From Pseudochrobactrum saccharolyticum (lineage in GTDB: Bacteria > Pseudomonadota > Alphaproteobacteria > Rhizobiales > Rhizobiaceae): a stretch of DNA of 64,000 bases. The stretch lies in assembly GCF_008801715.1 (NCBI RefSeq), contig NZ_VZPG01000004.1:124001-188000 (forward strand), read 5' to 3'. Position 1 is the first letter of the stretch, and each line of letters opens with the position of its first letter. The notes beneath the pieces were generated by a model that saw only the letters and a program-made list of their open reading frames with translations, searched no databases and was not told the origin of the DNA. The position numbers were made by a program, and so were the translations under genes. Of this stretch, positions 1-59,885 are shown one piece after another.

Positions 1-1703
1 TGTTCTATTTTACCGGACGCATTGTTGATATTCTTGACCAGAGTGCAATGGAGCGTAGCTGGCACGGTCTTTATATCAGCGCCGGTTATGAATTGCTGGC
101 CATGGGGTTTATCGTGCTGGTGGTGCGGGTGCTGATGACCGCGCTCAGCTCCTTGCTGGATGACCAGACAATTACGCCCGGATTTTACAATCTGATCCGC
201 TGGCAGGCCAATTCCTATGTGTTGCGTCAGTCCTATGCGTTTTTCCAGAATGATTTTTCAGGCCGTATCGCTACCAAAGTCTGGCAGGCAGGGCAGGCGG
301 CCGGTGATCTGATTACCAGTTTCATTCAGGTTGTCTGGTTTATGATTATTTACAGCATCACAACATTGCTGCTGTTCGGTCAGCTCGACTGGCGGCTTGC
401 GGTACTGGTGGTGGTGTGGATGGTGTTATTCGCGTGGATCGCACGCCTCTATCTGCCGACCATGCGTAAACAGGCCGAGGCCAGTGCTGAGGCCGGTTCG
501 CTGATTAACGGTCGTATCGTCGACAGCTATACCAATATTCAGACCATCAAGCTGAATACGCCGGATATGGATCAGGCCTATCTGCGGTCAGGCTTTGCCA
601 GCTATATCAAGACCATGCTGCCTTTCATGCGCACGCTGACGGGAATGCGCGTTTCCATGACTGCACTTTCCAGCCTGATGATTGTGCTGGTTGCGGCATT
701 CTCGATTGATCTGTGGACCAAAGGTCAGGCGACAGTGGGTGAGGTGGCTTTCACGCTCGGTCTGGTTCTGCGTCTGAATATGCTGCTTGGTCGTTTGATG
801 ATGCAGATGAACGGTATGCTGCGTTCCTATGGTGTGATTGAAAACTCCATGCGGCTGATCTCTGCACCGCTCGGCATGGAAGATAAACGCGATGCCAAGC
901 CGCTGCAAGTGACTTCCGGTGCTATTGATATTGAGCATGTGACTTTCCGTTATAGCTCCGAGAATGAAAACAAGGTGAAGGCCGGTGTGCTGAGTGATAT
1001 CAGCCTTGCCATTCGCGGCGGTGAGCGTGTCGGTCTGATCGGTCACTCCGGTGCCGGTAAAACCACGCTGATAAATCTGATGCTGCGGCTCTATGATGTT
1101 GATACCGGCTCTGTGCGCATTGACGGGCAGGATGTGCGCGATGTGACGCAAAGCTCATTGCGTGCGGCTTTTGCGGTGGTCAGTCAGGAGACGGCACTGC
1201 TGCACCGCTCTTTGCGCGACAATATTATGCTGGCGAAAGCCGATGCATCTGAGGAAGAGCTGCGCTTTGCCGCCAGTCAGGCCGAGGCTGAGGAATTTAT
1301 CGGCGCCTTGGAGGATTACAAAGGTCGTAAAGCCTATGATGCTTTTGTCGGCGAGCGCGGCGTTAAATTGTCTGGCGGACAGCGGCAGAGAATCAGTATT
1401 GCCCGTGCCGTTTTGAAAAATGCGCCGATTCTTATTCTTGATGAGGCCACATCAGCTCTCGATTCAGAGGTCGAGGCAACCATTCAGGAAAATCTGACGC
1501 GGCTGATGGCGGGTAAAACCGTGATCGCTATTGCGCATCGTCTGTCGACAATTGCGCAGCTGGATCGTCTGGTTGTGCTGGATCATGGCCGGATTGCCGA
1601 AAGCGGTACGCATGACGAGCTGATTGCTTCGGGTGGTATTTATGCCGGTTTATGGGCGCGTCAGTCCGGTGGCTTTCTTGGTGAGGCCGATGAGGAAATC
1701 TGA
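1..1703 (+). CDS. ABC exporter, fused permease/ATPase (5' end outside window)
   Basis: The frame is open from the first bases of the window (reading F-Y-F-T-G-R-I-V-D...), so the true start lies upstream and about 566 C-terminal residues are seen. Hydrophobic segments of an exporter-type transmembrane domain occupy roughly bases 60-850. The nucleotide-binding domain follows: Walker A G-H-S-G-A-G-K-T-T at about 1041-1067, signature L-S-G-G-Q at about 1368-1382, Walker B I-L-I-L-D-E at about 1429-1446 and an H-loop histidine in A-H-R-L-S. This is the layout of a half-size exporter that works as a dimer in the inner membrane. The substrate cannot be read from sequence; lipids or drugs are usual for the family. 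The methionine codon at 48 is internal. It precedes petABC but is separated from it by about 580 bases. Confidence 0.9.
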   Translation, partial: FYFTGRIVDILDQSAMERSWHGLYISAGYELLAMGFIVLVVRVLMTALSSLLDDQTITPGFYNLIRWQANSYVLRQSYAFFQNDFSGRIATKVWQAGQAAGDLITSFIQVVWFMIIYSITTLLLFGQLDWRLAVLVVVWMVLFAWIARLYLPTMRKQAEASAEAGSLINGRIVDSYTNIQTIKLNTPDMDQAYLRSGFASYIKTMLPFMRTLTGMRVSMTALSSLMIVLVAAFSIDLWTKGQATVGEVAFTLGLVLRLNMLLGRLMMQMNGMLRSYGVIENSMRLISAPLGMEDKRDAKPLQVTSGAIDIEHVTFRYSSENENKVKAGVLSDISLAIRGGERVGLIGHSGAGKTTLINLMLRLYDVDTGSVRIDGQDVRDVTQSSLRAAFAVVSQETALLHRSLRDNIMLAKADASEEELRFAASQAEAEEFIGALEDYKGRKAYDAFVGERGVKLSGGQRQRISIARAVLKNAPILILDEATSALDSEVEATIQENLTRLMAGKTVIAIAHRLSTIAQLDRLVVLDHGRIAESGTHDELIASGGIYAGLWARQSGGFLGEADEEI

Positions 1704-24276: not shown

Positions 24277-24918
24277 ATGAGCAAGCTTCAGGCAATCATA
24301 GTGGCAGTCACGCCTTTTCGGCAGAATTGCACAATCCTGTTCGATAAGGACAGTAAAAAAGGCGTTGTTGTTGATCCGGGCGGTGATGTTGATGTGCTGA
24401 AAGAAGTGATCGAGAACAATCAGCTGAAGATCGAAGAGATCTGGATCACCCACGGTCATGTCGATCATATCGGTGCTGCTGCTGATCTGCGTGATGCATT
24501 GCAGGTGCCGATCATCGGCTCTCAGGAAGAGGATGCGTTTCTCTACGACAATGTGGAAGCCTCGGCGACCAAATTCGGTCTGGGAGAGGGCTTCCGCAAT
24601 TTTCAGCCGGATCGCTGGCTGAAAGAAGGTGATGTTTTACAGGTTGCCGGTGAGAATTTTGAAGTCCTGCATTGTCCGGGACACTCACCTGGGCATGTGG
24701 TTTTCATCAATAAAGCCATGCATTTTGCAATTGTCGGTGATGTCTTGTTCAACGGATCCGTGGGCCGTACGGATTTGCCGGGCGGAGATCATGATACATT
24801 GATCCGCTCCATCAAGGAGAAGTTGCTGCCGCTTGGTGATGAATTCAGCTTTATCTGCGGTCATGGTGCAGGCAGCCGCTTTGGCGATGAGCGCAGAGGC
24901 AATCCGTTTCTGGTGTGA
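24277..24918 (+). CDS. Metallo-beta-lactamase-fold hydrolase, GloB-like
   Basis: 213 residues. The zinc motif is T-H-G-H-V-D-H-I-G near residues 58-66, then H-C-P-G-H-S-P-G-H near 128-136, G-D-V-L-F near 149 and a C-terminal C-G-H-G. This is the YcbL/glyoxalase II-like branch: cytoplasmic thioester hydrolase, lactoylglutathione being a possible substrate. The final part is a little short of the canonical G-P-x-T-T ending and reads C-G-H-G-A-G-S-R-F-G-D-E-R. Convergent with the BA14K gene. Confidence 0.9.
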   Translation: MSKLQAIIVAVTPFRQNCTILFDKDSKKGVVVDPGGDVDVLKEVIENNQLKIEEIWITHGHVDHIGAAADLRDALQVPIIGSQEEDAFLYDNVEASATKFGLGEGFRNFQPDRWLKEGDVLQVAGENFEVLHCPGHSPGHVVFINKAMHFAIVGDVLFNGSVGRTDLPGGDHDTLIRSIKEKLLPLGDEFSFICGHGAGSRFGDERRGNPFLV

Positions 24919-39095: not shown

Positions 39096-40055
39096 ATGAC
39101 ACAGCGCCATGTTCCTGTCCTTATTATCGGTTCAGGACCTGCCGGTTATACGGCAGCTATTTATGCGGCTCGTGCCATGCTGAAACCGGTTATCATCACC
39201 GGTCTGGAGCAGGGCGGTCAGCTGATGATTACCACCGATGTTGAAAATTATCCGGGCTATGCAGAAACCGTGCAGGGGCCGTGGATGATGGAGCAAATGG
39301 CCAAGCAGGCTGAAAATGTCGGCGCTGAAATTGTCTATGATCTGGTATCGGAAGTTGATCTGTCGAAGCGTCCGTTCACGGCGAAAACCGACAGCGGTGC
39401 GGTGTTTACAAGTGATGTTGTGATTATCGCAACCGGTGCGCAGGCCAAATGGCTTGGTCTTGAAAGCGAGCAGCATTTCATGGGTGGCGGTGTGTCTGCC
39501 TGTGCAACCTGTGATGGTTTCTTCTATCGCGGCAAGGATGTGATTGTTGTCGGCGGCGGTAATACTGCTGTCGAAGAAGCGCTGTATCTTTCGCATATCG
39601 CTCAATCCGTCACTGTTGTGCATCGCCGTGACAGTTTCCGTGCCGAGAAAATTCTTCAGGAACGTCTGCTGAAGCGCGAAAATGTAAAAATCATCTGGAA
39701 TCATGCGGTTGAGGAAATCACCGGTAATCCTGCCAATCCGCCGATGGGGCCGGTTGTAACCGGCGCAAGGCTCAAAGATACGGTGAGCGGTGCGATTACC
39801 GAGGTGAAAACTGATGGTGTGTTTGTCGCAATCGGTCACGCACCGGCGGTGTCATTGTTCAAAGATCAGCTGAAGATGAAGGATAGCGGTTATTTGTGGA
39901 CTGCACCGGATTCAACCGCGACAAGCATTGAAGGTGTATTTGCTGCCGGTGACGTGACGGATGATATTTTCCGTCAGGCTGTAACTGCGGCAGGTATGGG
40001 CTGTATGGCTGCGCTTGAAGCTGAACGCTGGCTGGCAGCACAACCGGAAGCCTGA
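39096..40055 (+). CDS. trxB: Thioredoxin reductase
   Basis: NADPH-dependent flavoenzyme that reduces thioredoxin in the cytoplasm. 319 residues. FAD-binding G-S-G-P-A-G-Y near residues 12-18, redox-active C136-A-T-C139-D, NADPH-binding V-G-G-G-N-T-A, and the C-terminal F-A-A-G-D-V motif. ATG at 39096 after GGAAAGAG. Followed by its own terminator and then the vtlR/lsrB-type regulator, a pairing typical of Rhizobiales and meaningful because LsrB of Sinorhizobium is redox-related. Confidence 0.97.
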   Translation: MTQRHVPVLIIGSGPAGYTAAIYAARAMLKPVIITGLEQGGQLMITTDVENYPGYAETVQGPWMMEQMAKQAENVGAEIVYDLVSEVDLSKRPFTAKTDSGAVFTSDVVIIATGAQAKWLGLESEQHFMGGGVSACATCDGFFYRGKDVIVVGGGNTAVEEALYLSHIAQSVTVVHRRDSFRAEKILQERLLKRENVKIIWNHAVEEITGNPANPPMGPVVTGARLKDTVSGAITEVKTDGVFVAIGHAPAVSLFKDQLKMKDSGYLWTAPDSTATSIEGVFAAGDVTDDIFRQAVTAAGMGCMAALEAERWLAAQPEA

Positions 40056-40395: not shown

Positions 40396-41301
40396 GTGGT
40401 GGCACCACTTGACTGGGATAAGCTACGCATTTTTCATGCCGCTGCTGAGGCCGGCTCGTTTACCCACGCGGCGCAGACATTGCATTTGTCGCAATCTGCG
40501 ATCTCGCGTCAGGTCAGCGCGCTTGAGCAGGATGTCGGTGTGGCGCTGTTCTATCGTCATGCGCGTGGCCTTATTCTGACTGAACAGGGCGAAGTTTTGT
40601 ATCGCACAGCACATGATGTGCTGATGAAGCTGGAAAATGTCCGCTCCAAACTCAATGAAAACCGTGAAAAGCCTTCCGGTCGCCTGCGTGTGACGACAAC
40701 GGTCGGGCTTGGTTCCGGCTGGCTGATCGAGCGGATGGAAGAATTTGCCGATCTCTATCCGGATGTGCAGGTGCAGCTCATTCTCGATGATGAAGAGCTT
40801 GATCTGACTATGCGTCATGCGGATTGTGCTTTGCGTTTGCGCCAGCCGCAGCAGCCGGATCTCATCCAGCGCCGCATGTTTACCGTGCATATGCATGTTT
40901 ATGCATCTGAAGGCTATATTGCCAAATATGGCAAGCTCAATGCTATTGAAGAGCTGGATGAGCATCGCATTGTAACCTTTGGTGAATCTGCGCCGTCCTA
41001 TCTGATGGGGCTGAACTGGCTGGAAACAGCAGGCCGCACTGATGGCGGTGCGCGCATTCCGACCTTGCAGGTCAATAATCTGCTTTCCATCCGCCGCGCG
41101 GTTCTCAGCGGTGTCGGGATCGGGGTTCTGCCGGATTACATGGTCGATAAAACATCAGGGCTGGTGCGTTTGTTGCCGGCTTTGGGAGAGATTCCTTCCT
41201 TCGATACATTCTTCTGTTATCCGGAAGCGTTGAAAAATGCGGCCAAGCTGCATGTTTTCCGCGATTTCATTTTCTCCAAAGCGAGAAACTGGTCCTTCTG
41301 A
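40396..41301 (+). CDS. vtlR: LysR-family regulator, VtlR/LsrB type
   Basis: 301 residues. Helix-turn-helix L-D-W-D-K-L-R-I-F-H-A-A-A-E-A-G-S-F-T-H-A-A-Q-T... and S-Q-S-A-I-S-R-Q-V-S-A-L-E are at the N-terminus; the substrate domain follows. Cysteines are C144 and C274. Two GTG codons are in tandem at 40396 and 40399, after AAGGGG. In Brucella VtlR is a virulence regulator acting on AbcR2 and small genes; LsrB of Sinorhizobium acts in LPS and oxidative-stress control. Location next to trxB and directly before an AbcR-like RNA (41469-41581) supports the assignment. Confidence 0.85.
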   Translation: MVAPLDWDKLRIFHAAAEAGSFTHAAQTLHLSQSAISRQVSALEQDVGVALFYRHARGLILTEQGEVLYRTAHDVLMKLENVRSKLNENREKPSGRLRVTTTVGLGSGWLIERMEEFADLYPDVQVQLILDDEELDLTMRHADCALRLRQPQQPDLIQRRMFTVHMHVYASEGYIAKYGKLNAIEELDEHRIVTFGESAPSYLMGLNWLETAGRTDGGARIPTLQVNNLLSIRRAVLSGVGIGVLPDYMVDKTSGLVRLLPALGEIPSFDTFFCYPEALKNAAKLHVFRDFIFSKARNWSF

Positions 41302-41320
41302 AACAGACCAATTGACGCTA

Positions 41321-41350
41321 AAAAGAGCCGGTTTTACCGGCTTTTTTGTT
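41321..41350 (+). terminator. Terminator of vtlR
   Basis: AGCCGG-TTTTA-CCGGCT followed by T6. It precedes the sRNA promoter. Confidence 0.88.
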
Positions 41351-41433
41351 GTTTAATGCCCATCTGTGCAGAAAAACCGGTTTCAAGATGCTGAGCTATC
41401 TGAAAATGCATGGCTGCTTTGCAATATCGGGCG

Positions 41434-41462
41434 TTGTGAAGTCAGGCTTAAAGGAGCATATA
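41434..41462 (+). promoter_or_regulatory. Promoter of the AbcR-like RNA
   Basis: TTGTGA (41434-41439), a 17-base spacer, then CATATA (41457-41462). Predicted start about 41469. A VtlR site would be expected just upstream. Confidence 0.65.
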
Positions 41463-41468
41463 CAACTC

Positions 41469-41581
41469 ATCTTAGTGATGCGTCTCCTCCTCCCATTGCG
41501 CATCCTAAGTGTTCCCCTCTGAAGGCTTGTCCATATGACGCCTTCAAAATTCCAAGCCGGGCTTATGTCCGGCTTTTTTTT
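41469..41581 (+). ncRNA. abcR: AbcR-family small RNA (abcR-like)
   Basis: About 113 bases, with 5' end estimated from the promoter. Stem 1: CTTAG + GATGCG pairs with CGCATC + CTAAG and exposes a loop containing CTCCTCCTCCCA, an anti-Shine-Dalgarno sequence. An unpaired GTTCCCCTC follows as a second C-rich site. Stem 2 is GAAGGC / GCCTTC, with inner GTC / GAC. The terminator is AGCCGG-GCTTATGT-CCGGCT + T8. Length, three-hairpin order and two C-rich modules match AbcR RNAs of Rhizobiales, which repress ABC-transporter mRNAs through Hfq. In Sinorhizobium, and I believe other relatives, abcR lies beside lsrB/vtlR. Confidence 0.82.
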
Positions 41582-41663
41582 GTCCAAATTTCAGGGCGAC
41601 AAAAGCCATCCCTTTTTCCGTATTCTATGTGACCCTGCTTATGCAGGCAGAGTTTTGTGCGCA

Positions 41664-41697
41664 ATAAAAAAGCCCCGAACAATATGTTCGGGGCTTC
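41664..41697 (-). terminator. Terminator of the aminotransferase gene
   Basis: AGCCCCGAACA-ATA-TGTTCGGGGCT with T6 following on the minus strand. Confidence 0.9.
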
Positions 41698-41718
41698 AGA
41701 TACTTTATGCGTTTCGTA

Positions 41719-43280
<1,562 letters not shown>

Positions 43281-59808: not shown

Positions 59809-59885
59809 GGGCCTGTAGCTCAATTGGTCAGAGCCGGCGGCTCATAACCGCTTGGTTGGGGGTTCGAGTCCCTCCGGGCCCACCA
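59809..59885 (+). tRNA. tRNA with CAT anticodon, probably tRNA-Ile2
   Basis: 77 bases including encoded CCA. Acceptor stem GGGCCTG / CGGGCCC (one T-G pair), D-stem GCTC / GAGC, anticodon stem GGCGG / CCGCT around loop CTCATAA, T-arm GGGGG-TTCGAGT-CCCTC. CAT could be Met or Ile2. The anticodon-stem and variable segment C-G-C-T-T-G-G-T matches E. coli ileX rather than elongator Met, so I favour Ile2, whose C34 is changed to lysidine by TilS. Confidence 0.9.

What the first reader, a model, noticed from the sequence alone, without database searches (positions are those of the whole stretch)
41434..41581. Complete AbcR-type small RNA gene beside vtlR/lsrB
Read directly: promoter TTGTGA-17-CATATA; a stem-loop (CTTAG/CTAAG plus GATGCG/CGCATC) whose loop presents CTCCTCCTCCCA; an unpaired GTTCCCCTC; a second hairpin GAAGGC/GCCTTC; a terminator with T8. 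AbcR RNAs of Rhizobiales have this three-hairpin plan and two anti-Shine-Dalgarno modules, and abcR lies next to lsrB in Sinorhizobium. Only one copy is seen here, while relatives often carry two, so the other copy should be elsewhere. The loop has an extended CTCCTCCTCCC, which may broaden or shift targets.
Basis: partly seen in the sequence, partly recalled or inferred. Interest (0 to 1): 0.8.

Follow-up and report, generated by a model that had tools for sequence, protein, structure and literature searches.

The report
AbcR small RNA beside vtlR gene
This is a complete gene for a known kind of small regulatory RNA (AbcR) that sits beside the gene of its likely activator in a bacterium related to Brucella; it is expected to damp the production of nutrient transporters, and it is an ordinary member of its family.

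Summary
Window 41469-41580 (+) matches Rfam ar15 (RF02345, the AbcR family) at 59.9 bits against a cut-off of 40, full length. It folds into the three hairpins described (z -7.24), with CUCCUCCUCCCA in the first loop and GUUCCCCUC open between hairpins 1 and 2. A VtlR/LsrB-type site, TGCATGGCTGCTTTG (41407-41421), matches 14 of 15 bases of the Brucella motif and is the best match in the 64 kb; it lies at -61..-49 from the expected start, as published for S. meliloti PabcR1. Upstream are trxB and a VtlR-like LysR gene. The host is Pseudochrobactrum or very near it. The predicted second copy exists elsewhere (G000:C3:422869-422971, 40.5 bits), without a VtlR box. The 'extended' loop occurs in the linked copy of all 7 genomes of the genus searched and in 29 of 52 relatives' linked copies; its exact 12-base complement occurs only inside sRNA genes here. 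Most likely function: VtlR-activated, anti-Shine-Dalgarno repression of transporter mRNAs, inferred from relatives; my target test was inconclusive. A new member of a known kind. By-product: a recurrent, possibly RpoH-type promoter on the unlinked copy.

The parts
39096..40055 (+). trxB, thioredoxin-disulfide reductase
   Evidence: NCBIfam TIGR01292 400.6 bits, cut-off 343.45
40396..41301 (+). vtlR/lsrB, LysR-type regulator, 301 aa, cysteines at 144 and 274
   Evidence: Pfam HTH_1 and LysR_substrate; 97-98% identical to loci named Pseudochrobactrum, 84-86% to loci named Brucella or Ochrobactrum; cysteines. No NCBIfam model reached its cut-off among the 25 shown of 56
41321..41347 (+). terminator-like hairpin after vtlR
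41407..41421 (+). VtlR/LsrB-type binding site TGCATGGCTGCTTTG (GCAT-N3-TG-N3-T at 41408-41420)
   Evidence: 14/15 to the Brucella motif quoted in a passage of PMC12595884, best of both strands of the window; consensus GCAT-N3-TG-N3-T from a passage of PMC7486931
41434..41439 (+). -35 element TTGTGA
   Evidence: TTG-N20-CATA in 51 of 52 relatives' linked copies
41457..41462 (+). -10 element CATATA
41469..41581 (+). AbcR-type (ar15) small RNA; start inferred, end in the T-run
   Evidence: Rfam RF02345 at 41469-41580, 59.9 bits; fold
41471..41509 (+). stem-loop 1
   Evidence: fold; covariation
41484..41495 (+). M1/aSD1 in the loop, CUCCUCCUCCCA
   Evidence: M1 = CUCCCA in PMC5461406 (passage), aSD1 = CUCCUCCC in PMC8844928 (passage)
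41511..41519 (+). M2/aSD2, GUUCCCCUC, unpaired
   Evidence: M2 = GUUCCC, aSD2 = UUCCCCUC
41520..41546 (+). stem-loop 2
41554..41581 (+). Rho-independent terminator, stem 41554-41575 and T8 (41574-41581)
41719..42927 (-). aminotransferase (aspartate transaminase type), convergent with the sRNA
   Evidence: Pfam Aminotran_1_2; best NCBIfam PRK06107, 566.8 bits, below its cut-off of 617

Best explanation
The feature is the vtlR-linked AbcR (ar15) small RNA of a Pseudochrobactrum-like Brucellaceae bacterium, the counterpart of Brucella AbcR2 and of rhizobial AbcR1. VtlR/LsrB binds the site at 41407-41421 and activates the promoter just upstream of 41469 (inferred from the site, its spacing and work on relatives). 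The RNA of about 113 nt presents two C-rich anti-Shine-Dalgarno segments, one in the loop of hairpin 1 and one between hairpins 1 and 2 (shown by fold). These pair with ribosome-binding sites of mRNAs, mostly for ABC-type and other transport or metabolic proteins, block translation and promote decay (inferred from Brucella and Sinorhizobium work). VtlR has two cysteines, at 144 and 274, close to the positions C144 and C273 of the Agrobacterium protein, which suggests redox state as the input (inferred; no alignment was made). A second, unlinked AbcR copy with a different promoter gives a separate input to an overlapping target set (inferred).
For: Rfam ar15 59.9 bits, full length; no other family over its own cut-off at the locus. 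Fold z -7.24. Stem 1 covariation in 18 distinct sequences: 96.7% of cells paired, 6 of 12 pairs with two-sided changes, covariation score 0.359 reached by 0 of 500 shuffles, 0.029-0.089 when slid. Among 121 distinct copies selected for exact M2 and CTCCC letters, M1 is in a hairpin loop in 116, and M1 looped plus M2 open in 85; with shuffled flanks 54 and 12 of 363. VtlR-type site 14/15; the exact box stands at the expected place in 7 of 7 linked copies of the genus, 50 of 52 linked copies found inside 80 vtlR loci, and 18 of 20 linked copies of further genomes (the sets overlap). VtlR relationship. Mechanism in relatives: passages of PMC5461406, PMC8844928, PMC7486931. Exact 9-base complements of M2 outside the two AbcR genes: 7 sites, 3 of them 0-6 nt before an ATG, the genes being an ABC ATPase with TOBE domain, a sorbitol PTS component and an SBP_bac_5 protein.
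Against: No transcript data. The target test with 8-base complements was inconclusive: ABC-transport components were 7 of 17 (M2) and 2 of 6 (M1) of the sites at gene starts, but 4 of 16 for the M2 complement read backwards (that control still shares AGGGGA with it; no significance test was computed). The sigma-70 consensus scan found no promoter. In minimum-energy folds M2 is not open in 33 of 121 copies. Two covariation measures are weaker: the number of pairs with two-sided changes was reached by 16 of 500 shuffles and the number of further pair types by 102 of 500. In the wider family the exact VtlR box is found in only 11 of 23 copies that have vtlR in the fetched stretch, and in 7 of 13 copies that do not, so box and linkage do not always go together.
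Confidence: 0.95

Rival explanations
1. It is an ar14/NfeR1-type RNA, which also carries CUCCUCCC loops.
For: ar14 also aligns here, 24.5 bits; this genome has two ar14 genes over the cut-off among the loci scanned.
Against: 24.5 bits against a cut-off of 58.8, while ar15 scores 59.9 against 40. Here CUCCC stands in one hairpin loop only; NfeR1 has three identical aSD motifs (PMC8844928 passage). The trxB-vtlR neighbourhood is that of AbcR (PMC7486931 passage).
Confidence: 0.02
2. The locus is a decayed, untranscribed AbcR copy, the other copy being the working one.
For: A vtlR-linked copy can diverge: at the vtlR locus of 5 of 11 Bartonella genomes lacking an over-threshold match it scores only 24.8-29.8 bits.
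Against: Box, promoter element, stem pairing, M1, M2 and T8 are all in place here; 7 of 7 genomes of the genus keep box, promoter element and loop; this copy scores higher than the unlinked one (59.9 against 40.5).
Confidence: 0.02
3. It is only the 3' end of a longer vtlR transcript, not an independent sRNA.
For: Same strand, expected start 167 nt after the vtlR stop codon.
Against: A terminator-like hairpin with T-run follows vtlR at 41321-41347; the sRNA has its own conserved promoter element and VtlR-type site; ar15 copies also exist away from vtlR.
Confidence: 0.03

Closest known systems
Brucella abortus/melitensis AbcR2 (VtlR-activated, near vtlR)
   Same: Motifs M1 CUCCCA and M2 GUUCCC, VtlR motif, position after trxB-vtlR (passages of PMC5461406 and PMC12595884; Brucella/Ochrobactrum genomes)
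   Different: Here directly after vtlR; in B. melitensis one hypothetical gene lies between and abcR2 is antisense to a second. In the Brucella/Ochrobactrum linked copies examined the loop is mostly UUUCCUCCUCCCA.
Sinorhizobium meliloti AbcR1 (ar15)
   Same: aSD1 CUCCUCCC in the 5' hairpin loop, aSD2 UUCCCCUC between hairpins, LsrB site at -61..-49 (PMC8844928 passages)
   Different: In S. meliloti AbcR1 and AbcR2 lie in tandem; here the two copies are on different contigs.
Agrobacterium tumefaciens AbcR1
   Same: VtlR-dependent, downstream of trxB and vtlR (PMC7486931 passages)
   Different: Tandem abcR1-abcR2 followed by an ArsR gene there; a single copy followed by a convergent aminotransferase gene here.
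NfeR1/ar14
   Same: CUCCUCCC anti-Shine-Dalgarno loops
   Different: Different Rfam family and plan; ar14 scores 24.5 here against 58.8 needed.

Membership tests
AbcR / ar15 (RF02345) | Score above the family's gathering threshold, full length | tested here: met
   59.9 against 40 bits, model positions 1-112 of 112
AbcR / ar15 (RF02345) | Three hairpins, the last a Rho-independent terminator | tested here: met
   Fold z -7.24; terminator; stem 1 covariation
AbcR / ar15 (RF02345) | M1 (CUCCCA) single-stranded in the first hairpin | tested here: met
   Loop 41484-41497; motif from a passage of PMC5461406
AbcR / ar15 (RF02345) | M2 (GUUCCC) single-stranded between hairpins 1 and 2 | tested here: met
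   41511-41516 unpaired
AbcR / ar15 (RF02345) | One copy next to vtlR/lsrB with a VtlR/LsrB-type site in its promoter | tested here: met
   binding itself untested
AbcR / ar15 (RF02345) | A sibling copy in the same genome | tested here: met
   G000:C3:422869-422971, 40.5 bits, just over the cut-off
AbcR / ar15 (RF02345) | Represses ABC-transporter mRNAs by base pairing at ribosome-binding sites | tested here: inconclusive
   Complementary sites at transporter gene starts exist, but the backwards control gave 4 of 16 against 7 of 17 and 2 of 6
AbcR / ar15 (RF02345) | Expressed as a discrete RNA of roughly 110-120 nt; Hfq association | not testable with these tools
   No RNA data; that Hfq belongs to the definition is recalled
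NfeR1 / ar14 (RF02344) | Score above the gathering threshold | tested here: not met
   24.5 against 58.8 bits

The most novel reading that the evidence does not exclude
In the Brucellaceae and near relatives the two AbcR siblings form a conserved two-input device. The vtlR-linked copy is switched by the thiol-bearing regulator VtlR, and one unlinked copy by a heat-shock-type (RpoH1) sigma factor through a TTGAA-N17-(C/A)CATAT element. This would name the regulator of Brucella AbcR1 that PMC5461406 called 'yet-to-be-described' in 2017.
Probability: 0.45. Interest if true: 0.4.

Novelty: new member of a known kind. Interest (0 to 1): 0.2.

Why it matters
It extends a well-studied sRNA circuit to Pseudochrobactrum; no paper of the library held both 'Pseudochrobactrum' and 'AbcR'. 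It offers a relative outside the listed genus in which the circuit could be studied. The comparison of linked and unlinked copies gives a testable hypothesis for how the two siblings are wired differently.

Tried and rejected
Extended loop as a new specificity: rejected as unsupported. The 7 linked copies of the genus have it and their 7 unlinked copies do not. The exact 12-base complement stands at 4 of the 14 TGGGAGGAG sites of the genome: the gene itself and three places in two ar14 genes. G-U pairing was not considered.

Target prediction by exact complements: suggestive with 9 bases, inconclusive with 8 bases against the backwards control. No significance test was computed.

Counting the VtlR box genome-wide: 855 exact matches of the loose GCAT-N3-TG-N3-T consensus (207 for the pattern read backwards), so the consensus alone is weak; the 15-base motif and the spacing were used besides.

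A clean rule 'linked = VtlR box, unlinked = TTGAA element' was rejected for the wider family. In the same-family and same-order copies outside the genus, the box is in 11 of 23 copies with vtlR in the stretch and in 7 of 13 without it, and the TTGAA element in 3 of 23 and 1 of 13. Two of the three are the second copies of tandem pairs (L005, L012), which would fit the S. meliloti AbcR2 precedent; the third (L007) is a first copy.

MAFFT alignment A1 of 25 diverse copies misaligned stem 1 and its automatic consensus fold was wrong there; model R1 built on it was not used. A narrower alignment A2, 22 sequences chosen for similar stem length, was used for covariation; that choice favours alignable sequences.

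A first architecture count (all three features in 70 of 124) started 3 nt further upstream and let M2 pair with the leader in several copies; it was repeated from the expected start.

The unlinked copy per genome counted was chosen. Of the 50 matches in the 20 genomes, 20 are linked and 20 are the chosen unlinked copies. The other 10 (L134, L135, L136, L156, L193, L195-L198 and one sub-threshold match not fetched) were left out. Eight of these were examined and lack the TTGAA element; L136 among them carries an exact VtlR box although it is unlinked.

Full report
What is there. A scan of the whole window against Rfam gives two matches over threshold: a tRNA at 59809-59882 and ar15 (RF02345) at 41469-41580, plus strand, 59.9 bits against a cut-off of 40, full length. 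A permissive scan of 41300-41800 lists 43 matches; only ar15 passes its own cut-off, and ar14 reaches 24.5 of the 58.8 bits it needs. The RNA 41469-41581 folds at -41.2 kcal/mol, against -19.7 (sd 2.97) for 200 shuffles, into hairpin 1 (41471-41509), hairpin 2 (41520-41546) and the terminator (41554-41575 plus T-run). CUCCUCCUCCCAUU is the first loop, and GUUCCCCUC lies unpaired between hairpins 1 and 2.

Surroundings. Upstream lie trxB (39096-40055) and a 301-aa LysR-type regulator (40396-41301) with HTH_1 and LysR_substrate domains. Downstream and convergent is an aminotransferase gene (41719-42927). The regulator is 97-98% identical to proteins of three contigs named Pseudochrobactrum and of one titled Bacillus subtilis, 99% to two without a genus name, and 84-86% to those named Brucella or Ochrobactrum. 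The host is therefore Pseudochrobactrum or very near it. What I call 'the genus' below is the seven genomes that the genome search groups as one genus (G000-G006). Passages of PMC7486931 and PMC12595884 describe the trxB-vtlR-abcR neighbourhood in Agrobacterium and Brucella. The regulator has two cysteines, 144 and 274. Passages of PMC11975290 name C144 and C273 of the Agrobacterium protein as the conserved pair, reversibly modified, and say that the B. abortus protein has two cysteines. That the window's pair senses redox state is inference; the proteins were not aligned here.

Control site. A passage of PMC7486931 gives the VtlR box GCAT-N3-TG-N3-T, a passage of PMC8844928 places it at -61 to -49 of PabcR1, and a passage of PMC12595884 quotes CAATGCAGCCATGCA as the reported VtlR-binding motif. 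The reverse complement of the latter matches 41407-41421 at 14 of 15 bases, the best score on both strands of the 64 kb. With the box at 41408-41420, the -61 spacing puts the start at 41469, the first base of the Rfam match. The second-best match in the window (13/15, at 24708) lies inside an ORF of 213 codons.

Comparison. Of 80 named vtlR loci with up to 3 kb flanks, 52 hold an AbcR copy with exact M2 letters inside the flank. Of these 52, 50 have the exact box at the expected distance, 42 match the 15-base motif in at least 12 places, and 51 have TTG-N20-CATA. The 28 without one are 15 named Brucella, Ochrobactrum or Rhizobiales bacterium, 11 Bartonella, one Tokpelaia and one Aliihoeflea. 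Nine of those 15 were searched as whole genomes and have a copy about 5.5 kb from vtlR by coordinates; six were not searched. The Aliihoeflea genome has a match of 56.4 bits. Among 61 genomes around the window's own, 35 have a match at E <= 0.01 and 26 one over the cut-off; all 7 of the genus have two. In the wider family the picture is looser: the exact box is in 11 of 23 copies with vtlR in the stretch and in 7 of 13 without.

Structure in relatives. On 18 distinct sequences chosen for similar stem length, stem 1 has 96.7% of cells paired, 6 of 12 pairs with two-sided changes and a covariation score of 0.359, against 0.177 in shuffles (0 of 500 as high) and at most 0.089 when slid. The count of two-sided pairs is reached by 16 of 500 shuffles and that of further pair types by 102 of 500. 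Among 121 distinct copies, selected for exact M2 and CTCCC, M1 sits in a hairpin loop in 116, M2 is open in 88, and both hold in 85; with shuffled flanks 54 of 363 have M1 looped and 12 of 363 both.

The second copy. The window's genome holds a second ar15 match at C3:422869-422971, 40.5 bits, just over the cut-off. It folds likewise (z -5.97) and lies upstream of an extracellular solute-binding protein gene (SBP_bac_8). It has no VtlR box. In 7 of 7 genomes of the genus and in 20 of 20 further genomes one unlinked copy carries TTGAA-N17-(C/A)CATAT and no box, whereas none of the 7, 20 or 52 linked copies carries that element (the linked sets overlap; the unlinked copies were chosen after the pattern had been seen). 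Outside this group 3 of 23 linked copies do carry it. A passage of PMC8844928 gives CTTGAA-N16-CCTATAT for RpoH1, which drives S. meliloti AbcR2, and PMC5461406 calls the regulator of Brucella AbcR1 'yet-to-be-described' (passage). The strict form TTGAA-N17-CCATAT occurs four times in this genome, against once for the pattern read backwards. One is this copy; one lies 60 nt before the first ATG of an Hsp20 gene; one lies before a small ORF that was not scanned; one is inside a long open frame of the other strand. The two promoter classes share TTG-N20-CATA, and some linked copies, L075 for instance, also begin TTGAA. The RpoH reading is therefore a hypothesis. The library holds three papers with AbcR1, RpoH1 and Brucella, of which I saw passages of one.

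Targets. Exact 9-base complements of M2 number 9 in the genome: 2 are the AbcR genes, and 3 of the other 7 lie 0-6 nt before an ATG. The genes are an ABC ATPase with a TOBE domain, a sorbitol PTS component and an SBP_bac_5 protein. Of the 14 sites TGGGAGGAG complementary to M1, one is the gene itself, five are in two ar14 genes, one lies 3 nt before the ATG of a Peripla_BP_4 protein, and one lies 7 nt before a TTG that opens a LacI-type regulator. With 8-base complements at gene starts, ABC-transport components are 7 of 17 for M2 and 2 of 6 for M1, but 4 of 16 for the backwards control. This agrees with the known function and does not prove it.

The longer loop. CUCCUCCUCCCA is present in 7 of 7 linked and 0 of 7 unlinked copies of the genus, in 29 of the 52 linked copies, and in 4 of 20 linked copies of the Brucella-centred set. 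It is a lineage variant; nothing here suggests a new target class.

Verdict. A complete AbcR gene: observation confirmed, interpretation supported, a new member of a known kind, low surprise. The mechanism (VtlR-activated anti-Shine-Dalgarno repression of transport mRNAs) is inferred from relatives and anatomy; transcription, VtlR binding and repression are untested here. Of PMC5461406, PMC7486931, PMC8844928, PMC12595884, PMC10746234 and PMC11975290 I saw passages and the start of the abstract; every other paper was seen only in search listings. 'Haemotropic' and 'bee-gut' for Bartonella, used among the things noticed, are recalled.

Noticed in passing
L053 (G000:C3:66494-69601), ar14 at 1334-1455 minus strand: An ar14/NfeR1 RNA (75.1 bits) lies directly 3' of a DUF1127 gene on the same strand, and a VtlR-type box (GCATAGCTGCGTT, read on the other strand) lies about 83 nt before the DUF1127 start. 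VtlR may drive a unit of DUF1127 protein plus anti-Shine-Dalgarno RNA; in Brucella VtlR positively regulates three DUF1127 genes (passage), and LsrB binds the NfeR1 promoter in S. meliloti (passage).
   Followed up: partly
L169-L173 (Bartonella genomes, vtlR loci): In 5 of 11 Bartonella genomes without an over-threshold match (haemotropic species, recalled) a divergent AbcR-like sequence stands at the vtlR locus at 24.8-29.8 bits, with M1 reduced to CCUCCCA and M2 changed to GUUCCCUUA; in the other six nothing above 18.8 bits was reported. B. choladocola, B. apihabitans, B. apis (bee-gut, recalled) and B. tamiae have matches over the cut-off.
   Followed up: partly
L002, L034-L039, L044, L150, L153, L157-L163, L180-L182, L184-L188, L190, L191, L194: These unlinked AbcR copies share TTGAA-N17-(C/A)CATAT at a fixed distance from M2 and have no VtlR box at the usual place.
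   Followed up: partly
L193, L195-L198: A further class of ar15 copies whose first stem begins GTCGAC, with neither a VtlR box nor the TTGAA-N17-(C/A)CATAT element, in four of the 20 genomes.
   Followed up: no
L136: An unlinked ar15 copy that nevertheless carries an exact VtlR box.
   Followed up: no
L190, M2 region: The unlinked copy of the genome reached through the Brucella oryzae locus has a shorter M2, GTTCCCTC.
   Followed up: no
L058: A contig titled Bacillus subtilis SK6B4 encodes a VtlR 97% identical to the window's; the record is probably mislabelled or contaminated.
   Followed up: no
window 41669-41697, minus strand: Strong terminator-like hairpin (13 pairs) after the convergent aminotransferase gene.
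   Followed up: no
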